This document shows positions 9,256 to 64,000 of a DNA stretch of 64,000 nt, piece by piece. This DNA is from Bryum argenteum (lineage: Eukaryota > Streptophyta > Bryopsida > Bryales > Bryaceae). Positions within the stretch are counted from its first letter, which is position 1, and the number at the start of each line of letters is the position of its first letter. The position numbers were made by a program, and so were the translations under genes. The notes beneath the pieces are model-generated. The model did not search any database. It saw nothing but the letters and a program-made list of their open reading frames with translations, and was not told the DNA's origin. The stretch spans positions 5,043,501 through 5,107,500 of the forward strand of contig CM073331.1 of the NCBI GenBank assembly GCA_037043015.1. The letters run 5' to 3'.

Positions 9256-12200
9256 TTATGCAGCATTACGTTTTCCCCCATTCTGAATCGCGCGAATGAA
9301 CTTAACAAGGCACTGGTAAGCAAGGTGCTCCTTGTTGATGGGCTTGCACGTATTACTGTGATCCGAATCTTCCAGTCTCACCACGTCGCCTGTAAATTCC
9401 GGCATCGATGAGGCCGGCACAATCGTTCTCTGCACAACAACTCATTGTTTCAGATGCTTTAATCCTCAAATTACAACTTAGGTCCCCAGACTAGAATATT
9501 AGAATCTTTCCTAAATGGGCATGATAGATAGTGCTTAAGGAACCAATCAGTGAGGGCTGCCCAGCAAAAATGCTTCCAGTGCACAGATCACATTTTCAAA
9601 TTGGAATTAGAAATGCACAATTTTCCTTGATAGCTGCATTTTTGAAGGCAAAGAGATTGATATTGAGAAACAGACTTGGGATTGACTACACTAAATTTGA
9701 TAATTAGTGTTAGATTATTATAAGATTTGAAAATGCTATAAGTTTTTACTTTTGTTTGAAAAAAATTACCAAGAGCATTGATTCTGATACTATATAAGGA
9801 CCCCCATCTTGGCCAATATAGTGGGTAAAATTATTGAACAACAGTAAAAACTTATAACATGTTTATATAAATTAGTGTATCTAACACTAATTATCAAATT
9901 TAGTGTACTGACGAGTGTGAGAATTCATTGCACACTCAGTGACTGGGATTGACGTTTGAGAATTTATGAGAATACGAAGGAAACAAGCTCGGAGTATGAT
10001 ACTTACCCCGGCTGTCTCCGTGCCCTCGCAGAGCGCCATCAAATTAACTCGTTCGCTTCTGGCAACCATGAAATCCTTCAAGAGCTTCTGCAGTTTGGAG
10101 GCATCACTGCCCAAGTCCGCGAAGAGCTCACGTGAGTAGGTCAATCCTCCAAAGACTTCCTTGAGCACACTGTCCTGCGGCACCAGGCCTGTGAAAGGTG
10201 GAGCGTAGAAGAAGCACCCGGCTAGGCTGGCTAGAAATGCTTTCGCCAGCTTGGCGCAGTTGCCTTCGAATTCATCCTTCACGCTGTCGATCGACGTTGC
10301 CTTTTGATTTAGCGCCACCACCAAGTGCTCAATAACCACGCAGCCCAAGCTGTGCCCCACCAGCACGATGGGCCGGTCCCATTTATTCTTTCGGCTCCAT
10401 CGTTCACTGCGCCAGACGAGCAAGCATCAGACATATTTGCGAGTGAGAAAATTTAACTATGTATGGGGATGGCAGTACCTAAAGACGAGGTAGCGTTGTA
10501 GTTCGTCCACCACGTACTTCATGCCGTCGTATGAAATGTCGTACTGCAGCACCAAAACGCGAATTTCACCTTTGAAATCCTTGAAGAGCCAATCTCGCGG
10601 CCACCACACATTCGGCTTGCCGCGCTGCACCCATGTATCCTTGGAAGACAGAAACTTCCGTTCACCCACATTTCCTTCGAAGAAAATGACATCCAGCGTA
10701 CTGGTGGTACTGGCGCTTGGTGGCACGTCCTGCGTATTGGTGGTACTCTTATTGGTGGTACTCGCGCCCGTTTCTGGCGATCCCACATCATTCACCATGT
10801 AGCCCAGTGGCTTATTGTCCAATTTCGGCACTAATGAACCTGCAACACCCCATCACAATATCGTCATTACGACGCATTCAACTTCGAAGGAAATACATCT
10901 GAGGTTATGCATGCCACTGACTTCATCGGAAATGAAAACGCTCTTGGTCGCTGGGATCGCGCCATGTATACATACACATAAACAACAATAAGGATTTACT
11001 CGAACAGGGCGTTTGATGAGGGAACGATACTTGTTGAGGAGATGGATGTGCTTACGTCGGGCAAAGAGAAGGCGCAAGAAGAGCAACCAAAACGAGTTCG
11101 GTTCAATTCGGTTTGGCTTTTCAGGAGGAGGAAGTTTATGCAACCGTTGCTTCACACCCTTGCGCGTGGTGAAGGTGAAGAGCTGGTGATCATTACAAAT
11201 GATCCCAAGGCTGCGGACCTGCGCGCAACGCACCATTTTCCACAGGTCGAGGAAGTTCGGTCGATCTTCTTGCTTCCACTGCCAGCAGTGCTCAATGATG
11301 AACTTCAAGTACTCTGGACACGCCCTTGGCAGCTGCGGCCGCGCGCCTTTCTTTATGGCATCGTTCAATGCCTCTCTCATGGTCCCCGCAAACCTGCACA
11401 TTGTTGTGACAACTATGAAATTTTGCCACCTCAGGTGACCGCGGATATGCTGAATATGGCGATGAGTGCAAGAAGGTCAGATCAAGAGGATCTGCTTTGC
11501 ATTTCTATCAACAAAATGGAGGTAAACTTACGGTGGTTTCCCAGTCATGACCTCGTTGAAGATGATACCGTAGCTCCACACATCGGCTTTCCGAGGAAAG
11601 TGCTTCTCGGAGATTATTTCTTTGTTGAAAACTTCCGGAGCGGCGTAGGTTCTATTACCCACGTTTCTGCTTTGCTCGGAATAGGCCGTGCTCTGTGCCC
11701 TGGTCTTCGCAAGCCCGAAATCACCCAGCTTCAAGCGCAAGTAGCCTTGCCTAGCAAGCTCAGGGGCTTCCTCAATGCTCACAAGCCGCACAAGCACATT
11801 GTTGGGCTTAAGATCGCGATGCGCTACGTTCTTGCTATTTAAGTGCCACATCGCCTTGGCCAACTGCAACATCACGTCAATCGCCACATCCTGCGTCAAC
11901 GCTGCCTGCGCATCCGGCACAGAGCCCGTTGCGGGCCGCTTCGGCTGGACTACACCCGTCATTAGCTGCGCCAAGTCCAGGGGTAGAAGCTCCATGAGTA
12001 TATGCGACTTCGACGGGAAGTTTAATTGCTCCGTCGCTGATGATGTGCTTCTAGGTCTCGATGCAGCATCAGAAGTCACCTGTGTTGTCAAACAAAGTCT
12101 CTCTAAGTGCGCTTGGAACATATTTCAACTAAGATGGGTCGTTGAGAAGGTGCATACCGGTGTAGTAACGCTGCTGTTGCCACGGGAAATAGAGCGTGAC

Positions 12201-13057
12201 GCTTCCCAGTAGCGGAAGAACTGCACGATGTGCGGGTGTTGGAAGCCGCTTAAGGTCGTGGCTTCCTTGGTGCATGAGTACTGGAGCTTCTTTAATGCGC
12301 ACTCGCGTCCCAGCCATTTGACCATCATCACAGCGCCAAAGGCGCCAGAACCAATTAATTCTCCGGGTTCATAGGCGTTCAGCTCCGGATCCGCCATGGA
12401 CTTAGTGACATCGATGTCTTCCAGCCGTGATCGCACATGGGCTGCCAAGCAATACTCGCGATCGTGCGGTTTATCTTCGTACGTACACAGAACCTCCAGG
12501 ACTCGCTTGAGGAGCTCCTCTTTGTCGAATTTCTCTTTCTCGTCGAGTTCTTTCGCGGCCCAACCCCCCGGCATCAACTGAGCCCTCAACTTCTCCCAAT
12601 CCTCCTCCGCGGCTGTCAGAAGCTGGAGCTCGATTTTCGGCCCGAAAGACACCGACAAGACGGACGTAATGGCGATCCCGACCATGGACGTCCACCATTG
12701 GAGGTCCAGCAGGATGTCCACGATGTCCTCCTTGATGCTGGTGAACGTCACCGCGGCCTCCAGCCACGTCTCGAATTCGCAGGAGCAGCTGCGCACCAGC
12801 GTCTCCGCGCGCTTCACCGTGAAATGCAGGTGCCGGAGCGCCTTGCGCCGGATGTCTTCGACGCCCGCAACCCCCTGCAGCTGCTCCCTCTTCGCTTGCA
12901 GGAACTTCCCGGTCTCGCTCACCTTGGACGACAGGTACGAGCACTGATGGTGATGCAGTTGATTTGGATTCCCTGTTGCCCCGCTCGTGAACTCTCGTAA
13001 ATACGCTATGCACGACAACGCCTCCTGGGCCTCCGGGAAGTAATCCATATTGGCCAT
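9256..13057 (-). CDS. HeLo-like / protein kinase / alpha-beta hydrolase fusion protein, paralog 1
   Basis: Seven exons by homology to paralog 2 (minus strand): 13057-12158, 12079-11532, 11393-11056, a 42-nt microexon at about 10955-10914, 10839-10479, 10406-10007 and 9429-9256; total 920 codons with the microexon. Residues 1-130 form a helical HeLo/DUF1221-like region. The kinase follows, with G-loop GSGAFGAV, ALKKL lysine, HRDLKPNN, DFG and APE all intact. The last three exons encode a SERAC1/SesB-like hydrolase: WPRDWL, GHSLG nucleophile and DHSNTCK histidine motif. Oddities: the microexon acceptor reads TG where paralogs 2 and 3 have AG, so the exon is probably skipped (14 residues lost, frame kept), and intron 6 carries a MITE. 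The ATG matches the start context of paralog 2. Likely role is signalling in defence or cell death, by inference only. Confidence 0.85.
9689..9905. mobile_element. MITE with perfect 26-bp terminal inverted repeats in intron 6 of paralog 1
   Basis: The termini are exact inverted copies for 26 bp, starting CACTAAATTTGATAATTAG, and are bounded by TA on both sides (9687-9688, 9906-9907). A second inner inverted pair (ATAAGTTTTTAC / GTAAAAACTTAT) lies inside. TA target duplication suggests a Tc1/mariner-type MITE. It explains why this intron is 577 bp while the same intron in paralog 2 is 113 bp. Confidence 0.8.
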
Positions 13058-21695: not shown

Positions 21696-24600
21696 ATGGC
21701 CAGTGTGGACTACTTCCAGGCGGCGTCGGCGTGCATCGAGCATGTGGTCAGGTTGAGCAGGATGCCAGGGCAACTGCATCACCAGCAGTGCCTGTACTTG
21801 TCGTCCGAGGTGAGCCAGACCGGAATCTTCCTGCAAAAACAGAAGGGAAAGCTCGAAGGGATCGCGACAGTCGATGACATCCGGCGCAAGGCGCTCCAGC
21901 ACCTGCATTTCGCGGTGAAGCGCGCGGAGACGTTGGTGCAGAGCTGCTGCTGCGAATTCGAGACCTCGTGGCTGGAGGCCGCGGTGACGCACACCAACAT
22001 CAAAGAGGACATCGTGGCCATCTTGCTGGACCTCCAGTGGTGGACATCCATGGTGAGGATCGCCATCGCGTCCGTCACGTGGGTGTCGTTTGAACAGAAG
22101 TTCGAGCTCGACCTTGTGACTACCGCGGAGGGGGAGTTTGAGAAGTTGAGGACGGAATTGCTACCGAGTGGTCGGGCCGCTATCGTACTCGACAAGGCCG
22201 TGGCGGACGACAAAGCGGAGCTCCTCGAGCGCGTCCGGGAGGTTCTGAGACGGTCTGGGAGTAAAGCGTACGACCGCGAGTATTGCTTGGCAGCCCATGT
22301 GCGGTCACGGCTGGAAAACACCGATGTCACTCAGTCCATGGCGGAATCGAATCTGAACGCCTATGAACCTGGAGAAGTAATTGGTCTAGGCGCCTTCGGC
22401 GCTGTGATGATGGTCAAATGGCTGGGACGCGACTGCGCATTAAAGACGCTCAAGTACTCATGCACCAAGGAAGCCACGACCTTAAGCGGTTTCCAACACC
22501 CGCACATCGTGCAGTTCTTCCGCTACTGGGAGGCGTCACGGTCTATTTCCCGTGCCAACAGCAGCGCTACAACACCGGTATGCACCTTCTCAACGATCCA
22601 TCTTAGTTAAAATATGTTCCAAACGCACTTACAGAGACTTTGTTTGACAACCCAGGTGACTTCTGATGCTGCATCGAGCTCTAGAAGCACATCATCAGCG
22701 ACGGAGATATTCAACTTCGCGCCGAAGTCGAACATTCTCATGGAGTATCTACCCCTGGACTTGGCGCAGCTCATGATGAGTAAAGCCCAGCCCAAGGAGT
22801 GGGTAGGCTCGAAGCGGCCCGCAACGGGCTTCGTGCTGGATGCGCAAGCAGCGTTGTCGCAGGATGTGGCGATTGACGTGATGTTGCAATTGGCCAAGGC
22901 AATGTGGCACTTGAACAGCAAGAACGTGGCGCATCGCGATCTGAAGCCGAGCAACGTGCTGGTGCGGCCCGTGAGCAGCGAGCACGCCCCTGAGCTTGCT
23001 AAGCAAGGCTACTTGCGCTTGAAGCTGGGTGATTTCGGGCTTGCGAAGACCAAGGCACAGAGCACGGCCTATTCCGAGCAAACCAGAAACCAAGGTACTA
23101 GAAACTACGCCGCGCCGGAACTATTTAACGAAGAAATATTCTCAGAGAAGAAGTTTCCTCGTAAAGCCGATGTGTGGAGCTTCGGAATCATTTTCAGCGA
23201 GGTCCTGACCGGGAAAGAACCGTAAGTTTGCCTCCAATTTGTTGATAGAAACGCAATGCAGATCCTCTTGATCTTCACCTTCTTGCACTCATCGCCACAT
23301 TTAGGATGTCCGCGGTCACCTGAGGTGGCAAGATTTCATTGTTGTCACAACAATGTGCAGGTTTGCGGGGATCTTGAGAAAGTCATTGAACGATGCCATA
23401 AAGAAAGGCACGCGGCCGGAGCTGCCAAGGGCGTGTCCAGAGTATTTGAAGTTCATCATCGAGCATTGCTGGAAGTTTAAACAAGAAGATCGACCGAACT
23501 TCCTCGGTTTGTGGAAGATGGTGCGTAACGCGCAGGTCCGCAGCCTTGGGATCATCCGTTATGATCACCAGCTCTTCACTTTCACCAGGCACGACGGCAA
23601 GCAGCAACGGTTGCATGAACTTCCTCCTGAAAAGCCAAGCCGAATCGAATCAAACTCGTTTTGGTTGCTTTTCTGGCGCCTCCTCTTTGCCCGACGTAAG
23701 CACATCCATCTCCTCAACAAGTTCTTTCCTTTATTGTTGTTTAATGCGTGTGTTCAGGGCGTGATCCCAGCAACCAAGAGCATCTTCACTTCAGATCAAG
23801 TCAGTGGCTTGCATAACCCAGAATGATGTATTTCCCTCCGGAGTTGAATGCGTCGTAATGACGATATTGTGAGCGGGTGTTGCAGGTCCATCACTGCTGA
23901 AATTGGACGATAAGCCACTAGGCTACATGGTGAATGATGTGGGAGCGCCAGAAACGGGCGCGAGTACCACCAACACGATGGTCGTGCCACCAAGCGCGAG
24001 TACCACCAGTACGCTGGACGTGATTTTCTTCGAAGGAAATGTGGGCGAACGGAAGTTTCTGTCTTGCAAAGATACATGGGTGCAGCGCGGCAAGCCGAAT
24101 GTGTGGTGGCCGCGAGATTGGCTGTTCCAGGATTTCAAAGGTGCGATTCGCGTTCTGGTGCTGCAGTATGACATCTCGGAAAGTGAGAAGGGCGTGGAGA
24201 ACAAGGGCATGGAGAAAAAGGGCGTGGAGAACTTGGTGCACGAACTGCAGCGCTTCCTCGTCTTCAGGTACTGCCACCCCCAAACGTAATTTAACTTTCT
24301 CCTCTTGCGAAGTTCGCTGATGCTTACTTGTATGGCGCAGTGGTGACTGGAACCGAAACAATAAGTGGGACCGGCCCATCGTGTTGGTGGGGCACAGTTT
24401 GGGCTGCTTGGTGATCGAGCGCTTGGTAGTGGCGCTAAACCAGAAGGCAACGTCGATCGACAGCGTGAAGGACGAATTCGATGGCAACCGCGCCAAACTG
24501 GCGAAAGCATTTTTAGACAGCCTAGCAGGGTGCTTCTTCTACGCTCCGCCTTGCTCAGGCCTGTTTCCACATGAGAGTACGCTCGAGTCCGTGTTCGGAG

Positions 24601-25027
24601 GTTTGACCTACACGCCTGAACTCTTCGCGGACTTGTGCCTTGATTCCTCCAAACCCCAGGAGCTCTTGGAGCAGTTCATGCACGCAAAAGGCGAACGCGT
24701 CCAATTGATGGCACTCGTCGAGGGCTCTCACACCCACGGGGTACTTGCCATATTTCGAGCTTGTCTTCTTAGAAACTCACACCTTTAGAGAATGAAAGCA
24801 CAGTTCGAGTAGTCATCAAAGGTTGCATCTGAAACGTTGCTTTTTTGTTGCAGAGGTGGGTTGTGCCGGCCTCTTCAATGCAGGAGTTTAAAGGTGAAGT
24901 GGAGGAGCTGGGAGATTCGGATCATAGTAGTACCTGCAAGCCCATCAACAAGGATCACCGCGCTTACCGGCGCCTCGTTGATTTCATTCGCAGGATTCAG
25001 AATGAAAGCAACGGAATGCAGCATTGA
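21696..25027 (+). CDS. HeLo-like / protein kinase / alpha-beta hydrolase fusion protein, paralog 2 (complete)
   Basis: Seven exons with GT-AG borders join in one frame: 21696-22577, 22656-23221, 23361-23695, 23758-23799, 23886-24267, 24341-24740 and 24854-25027, encoding 926 residues. Residues 1-130 are a helical HeLo/DUF1221-like region ending DLQWWTSMVRIAI. The kinase spans about 223-540: G-loop 230-237 (GLGAFGAV), K250, HRDLKPSN 387-394, DFG 420-422 and APE 447-449, with a CW...RP close. A linker (about 541-625) has the patch FWLLFWRLLFARR. The hydrolase (about 625-926) shows TLDVIFFEGN, WPRDWL, GHSLG (Ser755), FFYAPPCSG (the FLGTPHxG position of SERAC1-like hydrolases), candidate acid Glu863, and DHSSTCK (His893). 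All catalytic residues look intact. It was built from exon homology and splice rules, so transcripts could differ. An immune or cell-death role is inferred from relatives, not shown. Confidence 0.92.
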
Positions 25028-29514: not shown

Positions 29515-30982
29515 TTGGGATCCAACGATACTGATTCTTTAGAACAGATTGTCTCAGCAAGGATTTCGGTAAGGGAGGGGAGCAGCGAGGCTCCATCAAC
29601 AAAGCCAATCAGGACAGTAAAAACCAAGACTGGAAGGAAACGTTGTACCTCTGTTTCTACATGTATGCCTCTACCCCAAAAAAATTCAACTTTGGCTATG
29701 GATTCTTTCCTCCAGAATTCAAATGCCCCTGGTTGTGGATTTTTGCAAGATGAAGGAGCGCCGGTAGATATGCTCTTAGAGGCACTTAGGGATAACACTA
29801 TTTGTAACTTAGATAGCCAAGCTACAAGCAACTTTGAGCTTGTGTGGGCTACTTCTACATTATCCAATAGAAATGTTACCCTAAGAAGTGATGCTTGTAA
29901 AAATCTGCTTATGCCTCTATATGATTTGGGATGTGTCGGTCGTTGTTGCAATTGTGCCTAAATGTGAGTTGGTTGATTTGGTAATTCCCTAGATAGTGAG
30001 GCTCTATATTTGGATATGTTTCGGGGGCACTATTGTTGAGGAATTTTATGATCCCATCCTTGCCATAGATATGTTCAGAGTTTTGTTGTTTGGGCCTTGG
30101 GGGACTTTCAATGTCCCAGAAGCCGTTTGTAAGCTAATTGATGAAAACATGGATATTGGTAAGGTTAGTGAGGCACAATTGTCGAGGTATACACTTAGGG
30201 CCCCTAGTCCTTCAAGTCAAGATACATCCGATTGCATCTATGTTCCCGGTGAATCATCATCCTTTATTTCTCAAGACATTGACAAATTAGATAATTTAGA
30301 GTTAACACCTAACTCTAAAAAGTGGTTCATAAATTTATTTAATCCAACTAATGAATTAGGATTAAATTGCAATATGTCATTTAACGAATTCACTTCTTTA
30401 CCAGTCAATGAGCGTTTTGCTCCCGGAATGTGGAATTCTCCATCTACTAACATTCCCCCTCCATTTTGGTTTGGATATAACCAAGGCTTGGTAAGTCCCT
30501 TGATACAATGTAAAAATCCCATAGATTTCTTTTTGTTGTTTTGGCCTAACCATGTATTAGTCAAAATTGTGAGAATGACCAACTTGTACTCCGCTTCAAG
30601 CCATGAAGAAGGTAAAACCCGAGGAGGAGCACGGTGGGTCCCATTGACTGTAGAAGAGCTTTTGACCTTCTTTGGTATTTTAATGCACATGGCTACTAAA
30701 AAATTGCCAGATGTTAGATTACATTGGTCCAAATGTTTTGACGAAATGTTTTTAACCAAAGCAATAAAAAAGTGCATGAGTAGAAATAGGTTTGAAGATG
30801 TTTTACGATGTTTGCATTTAGTAGATAATAGGAATGTTATAACAGATAAATCAAATCCCAACTATAACAAGCTAGCTCTAACAGAGTGGTTAGTCCATGA
30901 ACATAACAATTTATGTTCTATAACACCGAATTCGATAATCTTGCACCCAAGAAGTGCAATGTACATTTGCAATCCGTTTTGA
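29515..30982 (+). pseudogene. PiggyBac transposase, N-terminal half (DDE_Tnp_1_7 family), broken
   Basis: Two plus-strand frames (29515-29961 and 29996-30982) encode the beginning of a piggyBac-type transposase. The second carries PLTVEELLTFFGILMHMA, then a W-K segment and MSRNRFEDVLRCLHLVDN, the hallmark order of the DDE_Tnp_1_7 N-terminal part. Family resemblance stops near 30915, before the catalytic aspartates, and the two frames are separated by stops. A compatible later piece lies at 35937-36292, so a roughly 5 kb insertion or rearrangement may separate the halves. Confidence 0.75.
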
Positions 30983-43085: not shown

Positions 43086-43481
43086 CTGTGAGGTAAAGTG
43101 TTAACACATGAGTTAGAGCTCAAAAAGGTGAGTAGCAAAGAAGACAGACTGTGACAATCCTGGTTACTTGCTCCTGCGAGGTTTTCTCTCACTCCTCTTT
43201 CTTTCCCTTCCATGAGATTCATATTCTCGTGCCAAGCTCCAAGAGTGCATTCAGCTTGGTTAAGCATCATTCAGGCATACTCTGTTTCTCGTCTACATTC
43301 TCATCAGATGTTACAGATTCGGGTTCACCAGATTCCTCATGAGGTAATTCAAGCAAGCATTTGCGAAGTTTGGAAATGTTACATTAATGTAAACAATTTA
43401 ACTGTAAGGTATCATAACTTCCTAGCAGGTTTAACAATGGCTTGATGTTGATTTTAACACTGGGTTGGTGTGCACATGCAG

Positions 43482-44002
43482 GTGTGGACAATTGGTCGCG
43501 ATTGCACACGAAGCTCGTTTCCATGTGCCCGGATTTCACAAAGAACAGCGAAGCGTGTCGGAAGAAATGGAGTGTCATCTACAACGACTACAAGGAGGAC
43601 AAGATTATGAATGCCACGGTGAGATCACAACGATCGGAGAAGTGCCGTTGGTACCAGCTCGTGGATGAATTTATGTATAACAAGGCCAATATCGTCTCGC
43701 ATGCACATGCAAGCGCTATCAATCCGGATGGACCCAAGTGGACAACCAGCTCCGACACGAAGACAACATTGCAACGAAGTAAGGTGAGCACATCCAAATC
43801 TCTACAGCCAAAGCGTATTAAGGAAGAAATCTTTTTAGAGCGTTGCATTGGTGAGATAAGAGAAAGTAGTAAAAGCTTCATGGAAGGAATGAAGGCAAGC
43901 AATGACATGAAAATGTCTTTACTAGTAAGCATACAACAAACAATGCAGAAGTTAGTAGTAAGAGAAGCTGTGAGTTGCTACTTTCTGCAATACATGCCTT
44001 AG
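43482..44002 (+). CDS. SANT/Myb-like DNA-binding protein of a PIF/Harbinger element
   Basis: After an acceptor CATGCAG ending about 43481, the frame reads WSRLHTKLV...ACRKKWSVIYNDYKEDK...CRWYQLVDEF, a trihelix/SANT-like fold typical of the second protein of PIF/Harbinger transposons, which helps bring the transposase to DNA and to the nucleus. A Ser/Lys-rich and then helical C-terminus (ERCIGEIRESSKSFMEG) follows. The first exon was not identified. It converges on the transposase gene 263 bp away. It could alternatively be a host trihelix factor, but the neighbour argues for Harbinger. Confidence 0.7.
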
Positions 44003-44264
44003 TCTTGGCCATCCAGAGACTCTTTGCTATTCCATTCATTCTTGCTCAAAGCTCTTTGTATGTTTCCCTCCTGTGCCCATTGCAATTTGGAACTCTTTTG
44101 CACATTCTTGTTTCATGTATTCCAAGATCTTTGTTGTTAATGTCAATGCTTGCCAAGCTGTGGAGTGCGTTGTTTGCAACAACCAATCTCTCCTGTGTGG
44201 AAATCCCTACTAGCTTGCCGGCGGATAGACCATTGTGCACTTCGTTTGTTGTCTCCTACATCCA

Positions 44265-45091
44265 CTAAGTTTTCCAGAAACTGTCTCCAAATATGATGCA
44301 CATGTTGTGCGACACCAAGCATGTGCTCACAAGATTAGGGACATTCTTCAAATGCTCCTCAACTCTCTTTAACAAGATGCGCCACCTGCCCTTGAGCATC
44401 CCAAATGCTCTTTCTACGCACATGCGTGTTGAACTCTGCACATAATTCCAGTGGTATTCCTCTCTTGTCAAGCCGTCTTTATAGCCTTTGAATGGAGATA
44501 ACATCCAAGGACGACAAGGATATGCGGCATCACCAACCAAAACGTAAGGTGTGAGTTTTCCTTCCTCACAGAACTGTCCAATATCGGATCTCGCCCACAG
44601 GTTTGCATCATGCAACGAGCTCGCCCATCCTGTATTAGAATCCTAGAACAAACATTTACTGGAAACCACCCCCTGCAAAAGGATGGAGTGGAATCCCTTC
44701 CGATTGTAGTAATCGGCGGCGTGTAGCTGAGGCCTCCAATGGGAATGTGGGAGCCATCTAGTGCCCCCACCACATATGGTATGTTGTGAATGTCCTCAAA
44801 CTCTTTTGCAAATTTTTCCATAATGCTAGGTGAAGGCCATCTAATATATTTCTTGAGCAAAACAGATTTCACAGCACCAATGAACCCAAAGACCGCAAGT
44901 TTACTTGTGGAAAGACCAATTTTGTACAAATCTGCGATGCTTTGCATTGAATTACTTGTCGCCAGTCTAGATATGGCTACGGCAATCTTCATTTTACCAG
45001 GGACAGCAAGCCGCATGTTCATATTCTGCCTTAGCATCAGTAATGCTAGAGTGCTACACAAACATTCAAACGTGGATACATCCATGCGCAT
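44265..45091 (-). pseudogene. PIF/Harbinger transposase (DDE_Tnp_4), one frameshift
   Basis: Two overlapping minus frames (45091-44468 and 44615-44265) carry the DDE_Tnp_4 motifs in order: YVVGALDGSHIPI (first Asp), SSLHDANLWARSD (second Asp), YVLVGDAAYPCRPWMLSPF, and VERAFGMLKGRWRILLKR (Glu). The N-terminal part shows the helix-turn-helix-like IADLYKIGLSTSKLAVF. A single frameshift near 44640 separates the frames, so this copy is inactive as it stands. Element ends were not resolved. Confidence 0.85.
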
Positions 45092-50742: not shown

Positions 50743-51060
50743 TGTTGAACTATAACTAGTAACTTCACACAAGAAGTACCGTAAACACTACTTTGCATTA
50801 CATGAATATCAGACATATACAATGGTATTCTTGCAAAGATTGAGCAAGCAGTCTAAAGGCTAAAACTGCATATAACAATACTTGCTTATCACTTGCTATC
50901 ACATACACACATTGATTAACTTCAAAGTCAGGTACTATATATATATATAAATCAGGCTTGTTCCGCTCCCATTCTCCCGCTTCACATTCTTCCACTTCAC
51001 ATTCTCCCGCTTCACATTCTGTGTCAAATTAAGAAACACGTCACAAGTGTTGATATTCCA
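50743..51060 (-). repeat. 3' LTR of the copia element
   Basis: About 318 bp, TG...CA ended, almost identical to 60276-60594. Contains an (AT)n stretch and a repeated CCGCTTCACATTCT-type motif. Confidence 0.92.
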
Positions 51061-51139
51061 ATACTCCCACATCAACACTGTGCTGACATGTGAATGAATT
51101 TACACACGTCTCCCACTTCAACACAGTGTAAAATATCTT

Positions 51140-53590
51140 AGTCACTGCAAGTTAGGCCCATGAGAGTACGGAAATGCTGAAACTTATCGCGCGGAAGCGG
51201 CTTGGTAAAAATATCTACTAGTTGATCTGCAGAAGGAATGTAGGTAATAGCAATCTCGCCATTCGCTTGATATTCTCGAAAAATGTGAAACTTAACATTG
51301 ATATGCTTAGTTTGCTTATGAAGTACGGGATTCATGACGAGGCGAATGGCAGCTTGGTTATCACAGTACAGAGGTGTCGGCAGAGATTGTTCGTAGCCCA
51401 AGTCACCTAGCAGACCTCGCATCCATGAAATTTCGTTGGCAGCAAGATGAGCAGCGACATATTCAGACTCGGTGGTGCTGGAGGCGGTGCACTGCTGTTT
51501 GCGACTACCCCATGCGATTGCTGCACCGTTAAGCATGAGTACAAACCCCGAACGCGACTTGCGATCATCTAAATCAGCTGCGAAGTCAGCATCACTATAC
51601 GCAGTCAAGACGTGCGGAGTACTCGTTGCGCTATAGGTAAGACGGATAGTAAGGGAGCCTTTGAGATACTTGAAGATGCGTTTCACAGCGGAAACATGCG
51701 GTGCCTGTGGCTGATTGGAAAACCGTGAGACGTTGCTAATCGAATAGGCAAGGTCTGCTCTCGTGCCAATAGCTGCAAATTGGATGCTACCAATTGCTTC
51801 CCTGTATGGGTAGTTGACTAAACCAGTCTGGCCATCCATGAGCAGGGTCAGTTGGGAAGCGCTATTAGGATCGGCTGGGACGACAAGTGGATTACAATCC
51901 TCGTGCTGAAACTTGTGCATGAGACGCTCCACATATCGACGTTGGTCAACGTGAATCAGCTTGTGTGATCGGTCGCGAAGGAGATGAAGACCAACATAGA
52001 TTTCAGCAGTGCCTTTGGTGATCTGAAAGGCGCCTTGCATGTACTCAAGCATTGTATCAACACGAGTTGAGGTTGGCCTGCAAGCGATGTCGTCATCGAC
52101 CCAAATAGCGAGAATAAGCTTTGGAGCAATCTTGTTGATGTAGACGCAATGATCATGAGGTGACTGCAGCATATCAAAGCGTTGAAGAAACGAACTGAAC
52201 TTGTGGTTCCAGACGCGAGAAGATTGTTTTAGTCCATAGAGGGCTTTCTTGAGTCGGCATACCATGGTAGGGGAGTCTGGAACAATAAAATCCATGGGTT
52301 GATCCATGTAAATGACTTCCTGAATTTCACCATATAAGAAGGCCGTGCAGACATCGAATTGAACAAGCTCCATGTTGTCTACGGCAGCAATGGATAGAAT
52401 AGCGCGGATGCTATCGAACTTGACAACAGGACTACAAGTCTCAGTGTAGTCAATTCCTGCACGTTGAGTGAAGCCTTTAGCGACCAGCTGAGCTTTGAAG
52501 CGACTGACGGAGCCATCTGCAGCCATTTTAATCTTGTAAACCCATTTATTACGGATAGGCTTGCGGCCTGCAGGAAGCATCTCCAAATCCCACGTATGAT
52601 TTGCAAGTAGCGAATTGTATTCATCTTGCATAGCTTGAAGCCATTGCTCACATTCAGGGGAGCTGAGAGCTTGTTCAAAAGTGAGCGGTTCCATAGGAAC
52701 ATATTGCGTGTCAAAAGCAGTTGCCACACCAGCGTAAGAATTGCGTGTGATCGGATAAATCCAGTCACCATATCGAACTGGTGGTTTGCGTTGACGGCGA
52801 GGTGAGACTAACTCGGGATTCTGAACTGCTTCATCAAGCTCCGACTCGGAGCCTAGAGTTTCCGTATCCACTGGTTCTACAGGAAGAGAAGGAGCTCTGA
52901 CACCATCCAATGAAGTATTAGTAGCCGGAACAGGAAGATCGGTGGGATAGCTAGCTTCGCCAGAGTCATGATGTATAGATTGAGTATCGGCACTACCACT
53001 AGCAGGGGTAGATAGAGTGGATGTGCTAACAACAAGCTGATTGTTCGTTGCAGGATTGTCTGCTGCATGATGGACTCCCACTGACGGATCAGCTCCTAGT
53101 GGCACATCAGCTCCCAATGGCCCACCATTTTCCACAGGCACATGAGCTCTCACTGGCCCACTTGTTCCCACTGGCACATGAGCTCCCACTAGTACAGGCC
53201 GCGCAATTTCACCAAGGCGTAAAGGCTCAGGAGGATGGAAATTATCGGAAACATGGACTGAAATAGTCTCGTCAAAAAGCACGTCACGGCTTTCAACGAT
53301 GCGACGAGTGTCGTTAAACCAAATGCGATATTCTTTACTACAAGCAGAATAGCCCATCATAACGCCCTTCTTAGATTTTGAAGAAAGTTTAGTGTGCAGT
53401 TTCACCGGCGTGTGAACATAGGTATCGGCACCAAATATTCGAATATGCGAGAGAGATGGTTTAACATTATACCACGCTTCGTAGGGTGTGCGACCATGGA
53501 GAGTGTGAGTCTCGGTACGATTTAAGATATAGACGGCAGTATGGACAGCTTCACTCCAAAACTTGATGTGAACATTTGCTGCATACAACA
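51140..53590 (-). pseudogene. Copia pol: reverse transcriptase and RNase H region (fossil)
   Basis: This part of the element shows the copia RVT_2 signature (FKAQLVAKGFTQ, YGLKQSSRVW, WVDDDIA at the catalytic YVDD position) and the RNase H region (SDADFAADLDDRKSRSG, TEHI-like KHINVKFHIFRE). It follows the C-terminal part of integrase with the usual GYSA...KEYRIW segment. Confidence 0.9.
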
Positions 53591-54265
53591 TGCTTCAACA
53601 AGCCTCCATTATTGTTCGATTATCGCGCTCAGAGACGCCATTATACTCGGGCGTATAAGAGGGTGTAAGCTCATGACCAATGCCTTCCTCTTCAAGATAC
53701 TGCTGGAATGCTTTATTTGTATATTCTGTTCCACGATCGCTACGAAGAAACCGAACGGAGTGTCCAGTTTCAAGATGAATCTGTTTCACAAAGCGCTTGA
53801 AGCTTGCAAGCGTGTCTGTTTTGGATTTCAAACACTCAACAACTATGTATCCAGAGTAATCGTCCTTGAAGAGGATGAAATATAAGGATCCACCAACTGA
53901 TGGAACACTCATGGGTCCGCATAGATCCGTGTGAACAGGTCCACTAGGAACAGAGGCTTTGACCAAGGTTGTCATACCGGGCGGGCACCCCGCCCGCCCG
54001 TCCGTCCGCCTTGTCCGTCCGATAGAGCTCTCGCTCGCCCGATACGGTCAAACCTCTGTTGACTTTAATTTAGGTAAAAAAACGAGGACGTGGCAAGGGT
54101 TAGGGTAAAAACCAAGCCACTTGGCCGCCACGTATGCGCCACGTATGCGCCACGTAGGTTGAGGACAGGGCGGGTGAAAGGGGTTAGGGGCGGGGGAGGG
54201 GGGGCCAGGGCGGGGGAGGGGGAGGGGGGGAGGGGGAGGAAGAGCGTTCCGACCGCGATTACGAG

Positions 54266-54469
54266 ATGAATTGGGCAACGGATGAATCCGACTGGGCAGA
54301 CCTTTTACACCACCGAAGCATTGATTTTCTGATGGAACAACATAGTCCCCAAATCGGACGCATGCTTCGAGCCATGCAACAATCGCAATTCCTGAGGGAT
54401 ATTCTTGAAGAAGACGGGCCTGCGAGGAGGACTCGATCGGCGATTCGTAGACTTGATTGGGCGGGGTGA
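54266..54469 (+). other. ORF inside the hAT resembling the N-terminus of a PIF/Harbinger transposase
   Basis: 67 codons from ATG to TGA: helical and acidic (SDWADLLHHRSIDFLME, later FLRDILEED), ending RRTRSAIRRLDWAG, like the basic R-R-x-R-R-x-x-R-x-D-W-x-G segment that precedes the helix-turn-helix of some Harbinger transposases. The similarity breaks off at the stop. It may be a captured fragment. Low confidence. Confidence 0.3.
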
Positions 54470-54889
54470 AGATTTGCGGAGGGTACGAATGATGCCGACG
54501 CCGGCCCAAGATGCGGCAAAGAATGGACGAGAACTAATTGTCGATTTTCTAATGTAGCAACCAAGATATACTTCTCTTTTTTCTATATCATTAAACACTA
54601 CTGAAATACATATGCTTTTCTTTTGCAAACTTGTTGCCACACTCTATGCATGTGTTTATAATCATATGATCATGTGAATGCTAATTATCATGGTGTCATT
54701 GTATGGTTAGCTTGATAAATAGTTAAGTGGGAGAAAAAAATTATTTTAAATCTTGTAATAATTAATAAATTTCTTATAAACATGATAGGACAATAAAATA
54801 ATAAACATACCGGTAGCGGATGTCAATCCAAAGTGAGGGGGAGAGGGGAAGTGAGGAGGGGTGAGGTTAGGGGGGTGGGTAAGGGGGTG

Positions 54890-57200
54890 GAGAGGGAGGA
54901 GAAAAGAAGAAAGGGAGGAGTGGGGAGGGAAGAGGAGAGAAGGGGAGGAAGTGGAAGAGGAGTGGAATGATGGTCAATCCAATCATTGAAATCCAAACAT
55001 TCCTCACTATATCCGGGATACTCCAAATCCCGGCTTTAATGAGGGAATGTTTGGATTTGTTTATCCCATTAATGATGCTTGTTTGCAAAACACAAGATTG
55101 GTGAGAGAGAAGGCAAATTTTTTTCAAAAAACTACGTGGGGTGGGTGAGAGAGGAGGGGCGGGTTACGGGGGGGAGGGGCGGATTACGGGGGGAGGTGCG
55201 GGTACCATGGGGGTAGGGCGGGTACCAAGGGGAGTAGGGCGGAGATGGTAAGGGGAATGGGGAGTGAGTGTGAGGGGGTGGGGTGGGGTGTGGGGTGGGG
55301 GGGGGGTGTGGGGAGGGGGGGGTGGGGTGGGGTGAGGGGGTGGGGTGAGGGTGGGGTGGGGTGGGTGGGGGGTGGGGTGGGGTGAGGGGGATGGGGTGGG
55401 GTGAGGGGGGTGGGGTGGGGTGTGGGGGGTGGGGTGGGGGGGGTGGGGTGGGGGGGGTGGTGTGAGGGGGGGTGGTGTGAAGGGGGTGAGGATGAGGGGG
55501 CGGGTGAGGATGAGGGGGGCGGGTGAGGGGGAGGAGAAAAGAAGAAAGGGAGGAGTGGGGAGGGAAGAGGAGAGAAGGGGAGGAAGTGGAAGAGGAGTGG
55601 AATGATGGTCAATCCAATCATTGGAAATCCAAACATTCCTCACTATATCAGGATACTCCAAATCCCGGCTTTAATGAGGGAATGTTTGGATTTGTTTATC
55701 CCATTAATGATGCTTGTTTGCAAAACACAAGATTGGTGAGAGAGAAGGCAAATTTTTTCAAAAACTACGTGGGGTGGGTGAGAGAGAGGAGGGGCGGGTT
55801 ACGGGGGGGCGGATTACGGGGAGGTGCGGGTACCATGGGGGTAGGGCGGGTACCAAGGGGGGGTAGGGCGGAGATGGTAAGGGGAATGAGGGGAGTGAGT
55901 GTGAGGAGGTGAGGATGAGGGGGTGGGGGTGGGGGGGTGGGGTGGGGTGAGGGGGGGGGGGTGGGGGGGTGGTGTGGGGGTGGGTGTGTGGGGGGGTGTG
56001 TGAGGGGGGGGTGGTGTGGGGGGTGGTGTGAGGGGGGTGGTGTGAAGGGGGTGAGGATGAGGCGGGTGAGGATGAGGGGGCGGGTGAGGGGGAGGAGAAG
56101 AGAAGAAAATGGGAGGAGTGGGGAGGGAAGAGGAGAGAAGGGGAGGAAGTGGAAGAGGAGTGGAATGATGGTCAATCCAATCATTGAAATCCAAACATTC
56201 CTCACTATATCAGGATACTCCAAATCCCGGCTTTAATGAGGGAATGTTTGGATTTGTTTATCCCATTAATGATGCTTGTTTGCAAAACACAAGATTGGTG
56301 AGAGAGAAGGCAAATTTTTTGAAAAAACTACGTGGGGTGGGTGAGAGAGGAGGGGCGGGTTACGGGGGGAGGGGCGGATTACGGGGAGGCGCGGGTACCA
56401 AGGGGGGGGTAGGGCGGAGATGGTAAGGGGAATGAGGGGAGAGTGTGAGGAGGTGAGGATGAGGGGGTGGGGTGGGGGGGTGGGGGGGGGGTGAGGGGGG
56501 GGGGTGAGGGGGTGGGGTGGGGGGGTGGTGTGAAGGGGGTGAGGATGAGGGGGCGGGTGAGGATGAGGGGGCGGGTGAGGGGAGGAGAAAGAAGAAAGGG
56601 AGGAGTGGGGGGAAGAAGAGGAGAGAAGGGGAGGAAGTGGAAGAGGAGTGGAATGATGGTCAATCCAATCATTGAAATCCAAACATTCCTCACTATATCC
56701 GGGATACTCCAAATCCCGGCTTTAATGAGGGAATGTTTGGATTTGTTTATCCCATTAATGATGCTTGTTTGCAAAACACAAGATTGGTGAGAGAGAAGGC
56801 AAATTTTTTTCAAAAAACTACGTGGGGTGGGTGAGAGAGAGGGGCGGGTTACGGGGGAGGGGCGGATTACGGGGGAGGTGCGGGTACCATGGGAGGTAGG
56901 GCGGGTACCGTGGGGGTAGGGCGGAGATGGAATGGGAATGAGGGGAGTGAGTGTGAGGAGGTGAGGATGAGGGGGGTGGGGTGAGGGGGGTGGGGTGGGG
57001 TGAGGGGGTGGGGTGGGGTGAGGGGGGTGGTGGGGTGAGGGGGTGGTGTGAGGGGGTGAGGATGCGGGGGGTGAGGATGGGGGTGAGGGGAAAGAAGAGG
57101 AGGGAAGGGAAGGCATACTCAATACAATCGTAGAAAAGTCAAACATTCCCCCCACTATATCCGGGAAAGTCCAAATCCGGGCTTTAGTGAGGAATGTTTG
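54890..57200. repeat. Tandem array of four and a half 490-640 bp units
   Basis: Units start with AGGAGAAAAGAAGAAAGGGA at about 54896, 55532, 56092 and 56581, with a decayed partial one from about 57083. Each unit has (1) a purine-only tract, (2) a conserved foldback of about 75 bp (AAATCCAAACATTCCTCA ... TGAGGGAATGTTTGGATTT around CCGGGAT/ATCCCGG), (3) a conserved TTTATCCCATTAATGATGCT stretch, and (4) a variable (GGGGTGAGG)n tract. Unit length differs through the G-rich tract. Long Pro/Thr-rich frames on the minus strand are artefacts. Confidence 0.92.
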
Positions 57201-57412
57201 GACTTCATTACTTTAAAAATACCCGGTAGGTGGAAGAAGGAGCCAAGGGGGGATCCAAGGAAAGAGAGAAATGAAGTTTCCGTATTTCCTCTCTTATTCA
57301 AGATTGCCCCACTACAAACCAATTCCCCCCTCTATTTCAAAGTCGAGCTACCACATCCCAAAAAAAATAATATTCTTAAAATGTGTGCTATTTTTCTCCA
57401 ATCCCACCTTCT

Positions 57413-57828
57413 ATTATGTTTAATTCATTCTTCTTCCCAATGCTATATTACAAATAAATTTATCATCCTAATGGTTTAATCATATATTTGATTTTACGAT
57501 CACAATTTATATTAAGACTAAAGAATGTACTAGTGGGTGGTATTATGTTTATTTCATTCTTCTTCCCAATACTATATTACAAATAAATTTATCATCCTAA
57601 TGGTTTAATCATATATTTGATTTTACGATCACAATTTATATTAGGACTAAAGAATGTACTAGTGGGTGGTATTATGTTTATTTCATTCTTCTTCCCAATA
57701 CTATATTACAAATAAATTTATCATCCTAATGGTTTAATCATATATTTGATTTTACGATCACAATTTATATTAGGACTAAAGAATGTACTGGTGGGTGGTA
57801 TTATGTTTAATTCATTCTTCTTCAAATA
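57413..57828 (+). repeat. 129-bp tandem repeat, three full copies and a partial
   Basis: Units begin ATTATGTTTA at 57413, 57542, 57671 and 57800 and are over 95% alike by eye. The unit is AT-rich and ends CTAGTGGGTGGT. Confidence 0.95.
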
Positions 57829-57889
57829 ACATTTTATTTAAAAAAATTTAAAAAATTTAAACAACATTTAAAAAACGCAGCACGTGTCC

Positions 57890-58310
57890 TTACTCCCTCT
57901 CCTATCCCACCTCCCACCTCCCACCCCCTTTCCCCCTCCCCTTCCCCCCCTTTCCCCCCTCCCCCTACCCCCCCATTATCCCTCCCTCTACCCCCCCTTA
58001 TCCCTCCCTCTACCCCCCCCTATCCCTCCCTCTACCCCCCCTATCCCTCCCTCTACCCTCCCCTATCCCTCCCTCTACCCCCCCTCTATCCCTCCCCCTA
58101 CCCCCCCCTATAACCTATCCATCCCCCTACCCCCCTTTCCCCTACCCCCTACCCCCTTATCCCTCCCTCTACCCCCCCTCTATCCCTCCCCTACCCCCTA
58201 TAACCTATCCATCCCCCTACCCCCCCTAACCCCCCTTTACCTCCCCCCCCCCCCTCCCGCCCCTACCCCCTCCCCCCCCCGCCCCCTCCCCCCCCGCCAC
58301 CAATGTAACC
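57890..58310. repeat. C-rich simple-sequence tract
   Basis: Pyrimidine-rich, made of variants of TATCCCTCCCTCTACCCCCC. The complementary strand has many runs of three to nine G, so G-quadruplex formation is likely. The Pro/Ser-rich frame over it is not a gene. Confidence 0.9.
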
Positions 58311-60145: not shown

Positions 60146-60275
60146 TTATGAACTGAACTTGATGGCAAGAAGTAAGGATGAAAGCGACGTGAGGTGAGGA
60201 CGGAGTCCTGAATAACAGACCAGAATACACTATCGGATCACAAAAGCACAGGGAAGATTGTTGGGCCCATAACCA

Positions 60276-60594: not shown

Positions 60595-60599
60595 ATAAA

Positions 60600-62409: not shown

Positions 62410-64000
62410 TCAATGCTGCATTCCGTTGCCTTCGTTCTGAATCCTGCGAATGAAATCAACGAGGCGCCGGTAAGCGGGGTGATCCTTGTTGATGGGCTTG
62501 CAGGTACTACTATGATCCGAATCTCCCAGCTCCTCCACTCCACCTTTAAACTCCTGCACTGAAGAGGCCGGCACAACCCGCCTCTGCAACAACAAAGCAA
62601 CGTTTCAGATGCAACCTTTGATGAGTACTCGAACTATGCTTTCATTCTCTAAAGGTGTGAGATTCTAAGACAAGCTCGAAATATGGCAAGTACCCCGTGG
62701 GTGTGAGAGCCCTCGATGAGCGCCATCAATTGGACGCGTTCGCCTTTTGCGTGCATGAACTGCTCCAAGAGCTCCTGGGGTTTGGAGGTACCAAGGCACA
62801 AGTCCGCGAAGAGTTCAGGCGTGTAGGTCAAACCTCCGAACACGGACTCGAGCGTACTCTCATGTGGAAACAGGCCTGAGCAAGGCGGAGCGTAGAAGAA
62901 GCATCCTGCTAGGCTGTCTAAAAATGCTCTCGCCAGTTTGGCGCGGTTGCCATCGAATTCGTCCTTCACGCTGTCGATCGACGTTGCCTTTTGGTTTAGC
63001 GCCACCACCAAGTGCTCAATCACCACGCAGCCCAAGCTGTGCCCCACCAGCACGATGGGCCGATCCCATTTATCCTTTCGGCTCCACAGCTCACTGCGCC
63101 AGACGAGCAAGCATCAGACATTTTTGCAAGTGGGAAAATTTAGCTATGTTTGGGGATGGCAGTACCTGAAGACGAGGTAGCGTTGCAGTTCGTCCACAAC
63201 GTACTTCATGCCGTGGTATGAAATGTCGTACTGCAGCACCAGAACGCGAATTTCACCTTTGAAATCCTGGAACAGCCAATCTCGCGGCCACCACACATTC
63301 GGCTTGCCGCGCTGCACCCATGTATCCTTGCAAGACAGAAGCTTCCGGTCGCCCACATTTCCTTCGAAGAAAATCACGTCCAGCGTACTAGTGGTACTCG
63401 CGCTTGGTGGCACGACCAGCGTATTGGTGGTACTCGCGCCCGTTTCTGGCGCTCCCACATCATTCACCATGTAGCCCAGTGGCTTATCGTCCAATTTCAG
63501 CAGTGATGGACCTGCAACACTCGCTCACAATATCGTCATTACGACGCATTGAACTTCGGAGAGAAATACATCTGGGTTATGCAAGCTACTGACTTGATCT
63601 GAAGTGAAGATGCTCTTGGTTGCTGGGATCACGCCCTGAACACACGCATTAAACAACAATAAAGAAAAGAACTTGTTGAGGAGATAGATGTGCTTACATC
63701 GGGCAAAGAGAAAGGAAAGGCGCCGCCTGACGAGCAGCCAAAACGACTTTGGTTCGGTTTGCTGGAAAGATGGAAGTTTATGCAACCGTTTCACCACGCG
63801 GTCGTGCCTGGTGAAAGTGAAGAGCTGGTGATCATCACGGATGATCCCAAGGCTGCGGACCTGCGCGTAACGCACCATTTTCGACAAATCAAGGAAGTTC
63901 GGTCGATCTTCTTGCTTCAACTTCCAGCAATGCTCTATGATGAACTTCAAATACTCTGGACACGACCTTGGCAGCTCCGGCCGCGTGCCTTTCTTTATGG
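62410..64000 (-). CDS. HeLo-like / kinase / alpha-beta hydrolase fusion protein, paralog 3 (5' part outside the window)
   Basis: Minus-strand exons: 64000-63698 (partial, last part of the kinase and linker), 63635-63594 (42-nt microexon with a proper AG acceptor), 63511-63166, 63093-62694 and 62583-62410; all junctions keep the frame. The visible protein has the kinase close EHCW...RPNFLDL, the hydrophobic-basic linker patch SFWLLVRRR...FLFAR, the Thr/Ser-rich linker, TLDVIFFEGN, WPRDWL, GHSLG, FFYAPPCSG and DHSSTCK. It is much closer to paralog 2 than to paralog 1, with exons 6 and 7 of the same length (400 and 174 nt). The HeLo-like region and kinase core lie outside, so completeness is unknown. 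Confidence 0.9.

What the first reader, a model, noticed from the sequence alone, without database searches (positions are those of the whole stretch)
21696..25027. Single-chain fusion of a HeLo/DUF1221-like region, an apparently active kinase and a SERAC1/SesB-like hydrolase
Seen: seven in-frame exons give 926 residues with a helical N-terminus, complete kinase motifs (GLGAFGAV, K250, HRD, DFG, APE) and a hydrolase with Ser755 in GHSLG and His893 in DHSSTCK. Known: plant MLKLs pair a HeLo (DUF1221) domain with a pseudokinase; fungal cell-death loci link HeLo-type domains with SesB lipase-like hydrolases; bryophytes have kinase-NLR and hydrolase-NLR receptors. Inference: one protein that combines a membrane-active helical domain, a switch kinase and a lipid/ester hydrolase could be a compact cell-death or defence module. 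I know of no description of this exact three-part layout.
Basis: partly seen in the sequence, partly recalled or inferred. Interest (0 to 1): 0.92.

Follow-up and report, generated by a model that had tools for sequence, protein, structure and literature searches.

The report
Kinase fused to cell-death-type lipase
A gene family, probably from a plant, makes one long protein that joins a helical front end, an intact-looking protein kinase and a lipase-like enzyme whose bacterial relatives often sit in anti-virus defence proteins, so it may be a compact immune switch, although nothing about its action has been tested.

Summary
The 926-residue, seven-exon model is reproduced. It is not alone: the window holds a complete second copy (B, 906 aa) and a third cut by the window end (C). 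A/B dN/dS is about 0.40 for kinase and hydrolase, and 7 of 8 A/B exon indels are multiples of three, so the fusion is real coding sequence.

The kinase has all catalytic motifs; its best single stretch among solved structures is 6ka4, an Arabidopsis MLKL by recall. The hydrolase is DUF676/SERAC1/SesB-like: Ser755 and His893 are kept in 17 of 17 bacterial relatives, Glu863 in 16; several match PD-Lambda-4 or ABC-3C defence models.

The N-terminus looks helical and MLKL-like in layout, but no profile, solved structure or confident model confirms HeLo. MLKL_NTD plus active-looking kinase is known (wheat Pm13), as are bryophyte hydrolase-NLRs and kinase-NLRs. The single-chain three-part layout did not appear in the listings of ten paper searches; plant proteomes were not searchable. 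New variant of a known kind; interest 0.56.

The parts
21696..22373 (+). gene A, N-terminal helical region, aa 1-226 (putative HeLo/MLKL_NTD bundle, about aa 1-130, plus possible brace helices about aa 134-206)
   Evidence: 66% identical to copy B; low-confidence all-helical AF2 models; helices amphipathic as a set, permutation p 0.0004
22374..23532 (+). gene A, protein kinase domain, aa 227-540 (introns 22578-22655 and 23222-23360)
   Evidence: PF07714 E 4.4e-39; all catalytic motifs; best single-stretch PDB match 6ka4
22443..22445 (+). codon of Lys250 (ATP-binding lysine)
22938..22940 (+). codon of Asp389 (HRD)
23031..23033 (+). codon of Asp420 (DFG)
23533..23980 (+). gene A, linker aa 541-640, including microexon 4 (23758-23799, 42 nt, same phase at both ends, so skipping keeps frame)
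   Evidence: in copy B the acceptor of the microexon is not there (sequence) and splicing exon 3 to exon 5 stays in frame
23981..25027 (+). gene A, SERAC1/SesB/DUF676-like hydrolase domain, aa 641-926 and stop
   Evidence: PADLOC PDLC02918 E 5e-7; bacterial relatives
24396..24398 (+). codon of nucleophile Ser755 (GHSLG)
   Evidence: S in 17 of 17 bacterial relatives aligned
24720..24722 (+). codon of Glu863 (probable catalytic acid)
   Evidence: E in 16 of 17 bacterial relatives aligned, D in the other
24923..24925 (+). codon of His893 (catalytic histidine)
   Evidence: H in 17 of 17 bacterial relatives aligned
9256..13057 (-). copy B, complete paralogue, 906 aa; exons 13057-12158, 12079-11532, 11393-11056, 10839-10479, 10406-10007, 9429-9256
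62410..64000 (-). copy C, 3' part of a third paralogue (end of kinase C-lobe, linker, hydrolase), cut by the window end; exons 63998-63698, 63635-63594, 63511-63166, 63093-62694, 62583-62410 with stop
   Evidence: the script ended the last exon one base short, inside the stop codon; one search gives 420 residues and a stop

Best explanation
Gene A is one member of a small duplicated family that encodes a single-chain, MLKL-related kinase with a SERAC1/SesB-like hydrolase fused to its C-terminus. Most likely mechanism: (1) the N-terminal helical bundle is a HeLo/MLKL_NTD-type oligomerising, membrane-acting module held by brace helices (inferred); (2) the kinase is catalytically competent and acts as the switch, by auto- or trans-phosphorylation, that releases or clusters the bundle (competence predicted from motifs, switching inferred by analogy with MLKL and Pm13); (3) clustering brings the C-terminal serine hydrolases together or to a membrane, where they cleave lipid or ester substrates (catalytic residues shown conserved, substrate inferred); (4) the outcome is local cell death or defence signalling (inferred from the kinship of the parts). 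The organism is not identified; a land plant is inferred and a seed-free one is a guess.
For: Single gene: frame and splice sites recur in copies A, B and C, apart from microexon 4 in B. A/B dN/dS is 0.49 over 893 codons, 0.40 for the kinase and 0.40 for the hydrolase. A/B exon indels are 9, 12, 3, 18, 3, 15, 36 and 1 nt (7 of 8 multiples of 3), against 1 of 9 intron, 0 of 9 upstream and 1 of 5 downstream indels.

MLKL kinship: among the 60 best of 276 solved chains shown for the kinase, the best single stretch is 6ka4 at 83 bits; the next named kinase, MAP3K9, totals 78.5 bits with a best stretch of 66; a tandem EGFR entry tops the summed list with two copies at 46 each. 6ka4 being an Arabidopsis MLKL is recalled. 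Both AF2 models give four long helices with a short helix between the third and fourth, then further helices. PMC9815663 describes such a short helix, hM, for MLKL and HeLo-like domains (passage).

Hydrolase: S755 and H893 are kept in 17 of 17 and E863 in 16 of 17 bacterial relatives aligned. All 14 relatives scanned pass the Pfam DUF676 cut-off; 4 of 14 carry the ABC-3C CTD9 domain and 4 of 14 match PD-Lambda-4_A. Two Marchantia NLR alpha/beta-hydrolase domains elicit HR-like responses and ion leakage in N. benthamiana (PMC11218826 section 8).
Against: No HeLo/DUF1221 profile match for the N-terminus, with E-values up to 10 asked for; the only hit was a spectrin repeat model with copy B (E 7e-4). 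Foldseek gave no match with E <= 0.001 and no MLKL in the 50 rows shown of 92. Model confidence is far too low to settle the fold (mean pLDDT 43 and 41, pTM 0.40 and 0.27).

The linker between kinase and hydrolase is weakly constrained: dN/dS 0.61 (A/B), 0.89 (A/C), 1.10 (B/C).

The hydrolase departs from its bacterial kin at two motif positions: residue 658 is E in all three copies and H in 16 of 16 bacterial rows with a letter; residue 807 is C or F and is H in 16 of 17. Activity is therefore not certain. There is no transcript, no species name and no functional evidence.
Confidence: 0.5

Rival explanations
1. An MLKL_NTD-like kinase-hydrolase that serves ordinary lipid signalling or development and not defence or cell death; the hydrolase is a SERAC1-like phospholipid-remodelling enzyme under direct control of the attached kinase.
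For: [quoted passage not shown] Kinase and hydrolase are both constrained. Nothing in the locus itself proves a defence role.
Against: Of 14 bacterial relatives scanned, 8 sit in PD-Lambda-4-like or ABC-3C proteins. The family is locally duplicated and mosaic, and its N-terminal region has a higher dN/dS (0.64 and 0.78) than its kinase (0.40), which is usual for immune clusters, though not proof.
Confidence: 0.25
2. A kinase-fusion immune sensor: the hydrolase is an integrated decoy or bait that pathogen effectors touch, and the kinase signals; hydrolysis itself is dispensable.
For: Two altered hydrolase motif positions (residues 658 and 807) with the Ser-Glu-His set kept. Integrated domains in plant NLRs and kinase-fusion resistance proteins are known (passages in PMC10951266, and PMC11218826). 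A carries a 12-residue insertion in the hydrolase region that B and C lack.
Against: GHSLG, Glu863, DH and CKP are retained in all three copies, with dN/dS 0.39-0.47 over the hydrolase, as expected for an active enzyme.
Confidence: 0.17
3. Two neighbouring genes joined in error: a kinase ending in or after exon 3 and a separate hydrolase starting near Met623.
For: Reading through intron 3 gives a kinase with a short alternative tail, and exon 5 holds an in-frame Met. The linker shows little constraint (dN/dS 0.61, 0.89 and 1.10 for the three pairs). No transcript was available.
Against: Exon 3 donor and exon 5 acceptor are kept in A, B and C. B has no acceptor for microexon 4, yet splicing 3 to 5 stays in frame. 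The same order and close spacing recur in three copies, and exon indels keep frame in 7 of 8 cases.
Confidence: 0.07
4. The N-terminus is some other helical module (spectrin-like, coiled coil or plain scaffold), so this is a kinase-hydrolase without a membrane-acting part. This rival overlaps the first three and is not exclusive of them.
For: Spectrin-type hit with copy B only (E 7e-4); no HeLo profile hit; no MLKL in the 50 fold-search rows shown.
Against: Helix order resembles an MLKL bundle with brace (against passages), and the kinase behind it is nearest to 6ka4.
Confidence: 0.33

Closest known systems
Plant MLKLs (Arabidopsis, DUF1221 HeLo + pseudokinase; 6ka4 and 6lba by recall) and MLKL_NTD-kinases (wheat Pm13)
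   Same: Helical layout like a bundle plus brace (low confidence), and 6ka4 as best single-stretch kinase match. Like Pm13, all kinase motifs are present (passages of PMC10951266). A weak, non-significant N-lobe piece aligns at aa 236 here and 248 in 6ka4, which would mean N-terminal regions of similar length.
   Different: No DUF1221 profile hit. Active-looking, unlike 6ka4, whose aligned catalytic loop lacks HRD and DFG. Carries a C-terminal hydrolase absent from those descriptions. The Pm13 kinase is placed in an RLK/Pelle subfamily.
Bryophyte hydrolase-NLRs (HNL / Hyd-NLR) and kinase-NLRs (PNL / Pkn-NLR)
   Same: Same two enzyme classes in immune-type proteins of bryophytes; a sesB-related hydrolase is reported in a putative bryophyte NLR (passages: PMC3352924; PMC4986451; PMC11218826; its section 8).
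   Different: Kinase and hydrolase are on one chain here, the hydrolase is C-terminal, and there is no NB-ARC or LRR match in the product.
Fungal SesB-like lipase domains of NLRs, and SERAC1
   Same: Predicted lipase or esterase of alpha/beta-hydrolase type used as an NLR effector domain (passages).
   Different: In fungi described as N-terminal domains of NLRs. Kinship here runs through DUF676 and the bacterial relatives; no direct alignment to a SesB or SERAC1 sequence was made, and the likeness of the C-terminal signature to theirs is recalled.
Bacterial PD-Lambda-4-like proteins and ABC-3C effectors with an N-terminal DUF676 hydrolase
   Same: Same hydrolase family by sequence, with conserved Ser, acid and His.
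   Different: No kinase domain was listed for any of the 14 proteins scanned; the hydrolase is at or near the N-terminus there, and L016 is little more than the hydrolase.

Membership tests
Plant MLKL / HeLo (DUF1221) kinase family | DUF1221 or HeLo profile match in the N-terminal region | tested here: not met
   Pfam scan of aa 1-226: none at E up to 1; A and B at E up to 10: only a spectrin model with B. CDD MLKL_NTD could not be tested.
Plant MLKL / HeLo (DUF1221) kinase family | Four-helix bundle with brace helices | tested here: inconclusive
   Helix order fits, but mean pLDDT 41-43 and no significant PDB match
Plant MLKL / HeLo (DUF1221) kinase family | Kinase or pseudokinase domain of MLKL kind behind the bundle | tested here: inconclusive
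   Best single-stretch PDB match 6ka4, 83 bits; PF07714 E 4.4e-39. No tree was made and the MLKL label of 6ka4 is recalled.
Plant MLKL / HeLo (DUF1221) kinase family | N-terminal domain triggers cell death | not testable with these tools
   needs expression in planta
Active protein kinase | Gly loop, VAIK Lys, alpha-C Glu, HRD, DFG, APE | tested here: met
   All present in A and, read from the alignment, in B; C lacks these parts because the window cuts it
DUF676 / SERAC1 / SesB-like serine hydrolase | Pfam DUF676 above the curated cut-off in the protein itself | tested here: not met
   14.2 bits against 20.3 for A; best E of the three copies 0.0054
DUF676 / SERAC1 / SesB-like serine hydrolase | Homology to DUF676 members over most of the domain with Ser, acid and His conserved | tested here: met
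   PDLC02918 E 5e-7; plasmid tblastn E 3e-6 over 86% of the query; S 17/17, E 16/17, H 17/17
DUF676 / SERAC1 / SesB-like serine hydrolase | His before the first conserved Gly (HG) and His of the TPH motif, as in the bacterial relatives | tested here: not met
   Residue 658 is E and residue 807 is C or F in the window copies; bacterial rows H 16/16 and H 16/17
Hyd-NLR or Pkn-NLR | NB-ARC and LRR on the same chain | tested here: not met
   Pfam scan of the 926-aa product lists only kinase and weak hydrolase models

The most novel reading that the evidence does not exclude
A self-contained two-effector executioner: a necroptosis-type kinase (HeLo bundle plus active kinase) that carries its own SERAC1-type lipase, of the hydrolase family that bacteria place in antiphage PD-Lambda-4-like and ABC-3C proteins and fungi in NLRs. 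Membrane attack and lipid cleavage would then be switched by one kinase on one chain, bypassing the NLR altogether in a plant.
Probability: 0.27. Interest if true: 0.85.

Novelty: new variant of a known kind. Interest (0 to 1): 0.56.

Why it matters
HeLo bundles, kinases and SesB/SERAC1-type hydrolases turn up as separate or NLR-borne parts of cell-death systems in fungi and plants, and the hydrolase family also in bacterial antiphage proteins. A plant-like gene family that keeps a kinase and such a hydrolase on one chain under purifying selection gives a compact test object. One can ask whether an MLKL-like switch can drive a lipase, and whether the hydrolases of bryophyte NLRs and of bacterial antiphage proteins share a function. 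Changes at Ser755 and Asp389 and removal of the N-terminus make that directly testable in leaf assays.

Tried and rejected
HeLo test by profile, by solved-structure sequence search, by two AlphaFold jobs on single-exon N-terminal sequence of A and B, and by Foldseek: all negative or too weak. I did not run the second structural aligner, because long stretches under pLDDT 60 are left out there and nearly all of the model is below that.

Relatives of the N-terminus in viral contigs: 225 pattern matches, none confirmed. First hydrolase scan of genome contigs with the paralogue-only alignment: 42 pattern matches, none confirmed. NCBIfam gave only two weak hits (E 0.06 and 0.13). A profile search of PDB with the hydrolase gave three hits, all E > 1.

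'Two genes joined by mistake' judged unlikely: see rivals. 'Pseudogene' rejected: open frames in three copies and pairwise dN/dS 0.46-0.54.

Papers: ten searches. The listed titles and abstracts showed no HeLo-kinase-hydrolase protein; lists were capped at 10 to 25 rows (up to 78,024 papers held the asked-for terms; one search returned none and one a single paper). Only open-licence PMC papers are held, and annotated plant proteomes were not searchable, so the architecture may exist there unremarked. Seen: passages of PMC11218826 plus its section 8; passages of PMC10951266 plus its section 13; passages of PMC3352924, PMC9815663 and PMC4986451; the rest as listings only. I looked in PMC10951266 and PMC9815663 for the names 6KA4 and 6LBA to confirm that these chains are Arabidopsis MLKLs and found neither.

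Recalled, from no call: that 6ka4 and 6lba are Arabidopsis MLKLs; the likeness of the C-terminal hydrolase signature to SERAC1/SesB; my comparison of helix boundaries with human MLKL; that seed-free plants hold many MLKL_NTD kinases; the PIF/Harbinger reading of one neighbour.

Mended on checking: the last exon of C ends at 62410, not 62411; the MLKL label of 6ka4 and the weak N-lobe alignment are now marked as such; the linker dN/dS values and the single-helix results that run against me are now told. The rival 'two genes' was raised from 0.06 to 0.07 for the linker values, and 'other helical module' from 0.30 to 0.33 because the MLKL label is recalled.
Full report
What is in the sequence. 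The seven-exon model is right. Exons at + 21696-22577, 22656-23221, 23361-23695, 23758-23799, 23886-24267, 24341-24740 and 24854-25027 splice with GT-AG ends into 926 codons. The start codon is the first ATG in its open frame and is matched by a Met at the same place in copy B. Pfam sees only the kinase above cut-off (PF07714, E 4.4e-39), weak alpha/beta-hydrolase models, and nothing in aa 1-226.

There are three copies, not one. A tblastn of the product against the window finds copy B on the minus strand (13057-9256, six exons, 906 aa, complete). It also finds copy C on the minus strand (63998-62410), which the window end cuts inside the kinase C-lobe. A and B lie head to head. B has no acceptor for the 42-nt microexon 4, but because both ends of that exon have the same phase, B stays in frame. 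A/B amino-acid identity is 76% over 893 codons. dN/dS is 0.49 overall, 0.40 for the kinase, 0.40 for the hydrolase, and 0.64 and 0.78 for the two halves of the N-terminal region. A/C is 0.54 and B/C 0.46 over their shared part. Of the A/B exon indels, 7 of 8 are multiples of three (the eighth shifts the last few residues); of intron indels 1 of 9, upstream 0 of 9, downstream 1 of 5. A/C: exons 3 of 3, introns 1 of 3, downstream 1 of 4. So kinase and hydrolase look translated, constrained and inherited as one unit.

Results that cut the other way. The linker (aa 541-640) shows dN/dS 0.61, 0.89 and 1.10 for A/B, A/C and B/C, and the kinase-end stretch shared with C (aa 496-595) 0.34, 0.75 and 0.53. 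A free linker fits this, but so would two genes. Introns 1 and 2 are more alike (0.94, 0.92) than exon 1 (0.83), and the odd-one-out pattern switches along the shared span. I read this as gene conversion among copies, which makes dS uneven.

The kinase. Gly loop (230), K250, E259, HRD (387-389), DFG (420) and APE (447) are all present, and B keeps them. Against all solved structures 276 distinct chains match at E <= 1e-15, 60 shown. A tandem EGFR entry tops the summed list (96.7 bits from two copies at 45.7 each). The best single stretch is 6ka4 ('F22L4.1 protein'; an Arabidopsis MLKL by recall) at 83.3 bits, aa 360-538; the next, MAP3K9, totals 78.5 bits with a best stretch of 66.1. 6lba, recalled as a second Arabidopsis MLKL, scored 69.7 bits with the longer query, no better than Src-family kinases. 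The 6ka4 alignment shows the same catalytic loop without HRD or DFG. A further N-lobe piece pairs aa 236 here with 248 in 6ka4, but it is not significant on its own (-1.7 bits).

The N-terminus. Both AlphaFold jobs (A first, 226 aa; B first, 195 aa; two sequences each) give only helices: four long ones with a short helix between the third and fourth, a shorter one after the second, then two or more behind. Over eight of the ten helices of model A, chosen by me, amphipathicity summed beats shuffles (p 0.0004), and none of the three prolines of aa 1-226 falls inside them; one by one only the third helix (p 0.011) and the second brace helix (p 0.034) pass 0.05. The layout resembles that described for MLKL and HeLo-like domains and for Pm13 with its brace. 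But mean pLDDT is 43 and 41, Foldseek finds nothing significant, and no HeLo profile or solved chain matches. I put HeLo/MLKL_NTD at about two in three; it is inference, not result.

The hydrolase. It falls below the Pfam cut-offs on its own, but PADLOC model PDLC02918 matches all three copies, best E 5e-7. tblastn against plasmids finds six records (best E 3e-6), four of which I fetched. In an alignment with 17 bacterial proteins (13 of the 14 loci and the four plasmid ones), Ser755 and His893 are kept in 17 and Glu863 in 16 of 17, Asp in the other. All 14 bacterial proteins that I scanned (10 of 14 loci and four plasmid ones) pass the DUF676 cut-off. Four carry the ABC-3C CTD9 domain (L002, L005, L006, L009), four match PD-Lambda-4_A (L001, L003, L014, L015), two carry a HTH_upst_double_PIN domain (L008, L011), four show neither (L004, L007, L010, L016), and none is listed with a kinase domain. 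The window copies differ from these at residue 658 (E; bacterial H 16 of 16) and residue 807 (C or F; bacterial H 16 of 17), so enzymatic activity needs a test. PMC4986451 links the sesB-like lipase domain of fungal NLRs to SERAC1 and to a bryophyte NLR (passages).

How it probably works. Bundle and brace in front, kinase as switch, hydrolase as a second effector behind. Shown here: one frame through three copies, complete kinase motifs, conserved Ser-Glu-His, paralogue constraint. Inferred: bundle fold, membrane action, phosphorylation switch, lipid substrate, cell death. The nearest experimental support for the parts: two Marchantia NLR hydrolase domains gave HR-like responses and ion leakage in N. 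benthamiana, the wheat Tsn1 kinase domain gave a reliable HR and a moss kinase a modest, variable one (PMC11218826 section 8). Pm13, an MLKL_NTD protein with complete kinase motifs, is a wheat mildew resistance gene.

What is new. [quoted passage not shown] Kinase-NLRs and hydrolase-NLRs are known in bryophytes. The kinase-hydrolase single chain with a helical front did not appear in the listings of ten searches of open-licence papers (named in Tried and rejected); plant proteome databases were not available. I call it a new variant of a known kind. A land plant is inferred from the kinase match and the copia element, and a seed-free plant is only a guess.

Noticed in passing
50744-60597: A copia-type LTR retrotransposon: flanking repeats 50744-51063 and 60276-60597 are 98.8% identical, with RVT_2 and integrase matches within 51141-54047 and gag at 59008-60237, minus strand, suggesting a recent insertion.
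   Followed up: partly
54833-57850: Strongly G-skewed repeats (GC skew 0.55 over 54001-56000; repeat pairs) lie inside the copia element between its gag and pol parts, an odd repetitive stretch of about 3 kb.
   Followed up: no
29993-30979: ORF with a DDE_Tnp_1_7 transposase match (E 4e-21; piggyBac-type by recall), about 5 kb downstream of gene A.
   Followed up: no
9687-9907: Palindromic, MITE-like repeat (70% self-complementary) inside the last intron of copy B, which is 577 nt against 113 nt in A.
   Followed up: no
23758-23799: Microexon of 42 nt with the same phase at both ends; acceptor kept in A and C, absent in B. Possible cassette exon between kinase and hydrolase.
   Followed up: partly
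43418-45091: ORF with a weak Myb/SANT-like match (E 0.0097, below cut-off) next to a second long ORF without a Pfam match at E 0.01; from memory this pairing recalls a PIF/Harbinger element.
   Followed up: no
24166-24240: Gene A alone has an inserted run of short near-repeats (KGVENKGMEKKGVEN) in the hydrolase region, 36 nt longer than B and C.
   Followed up: no
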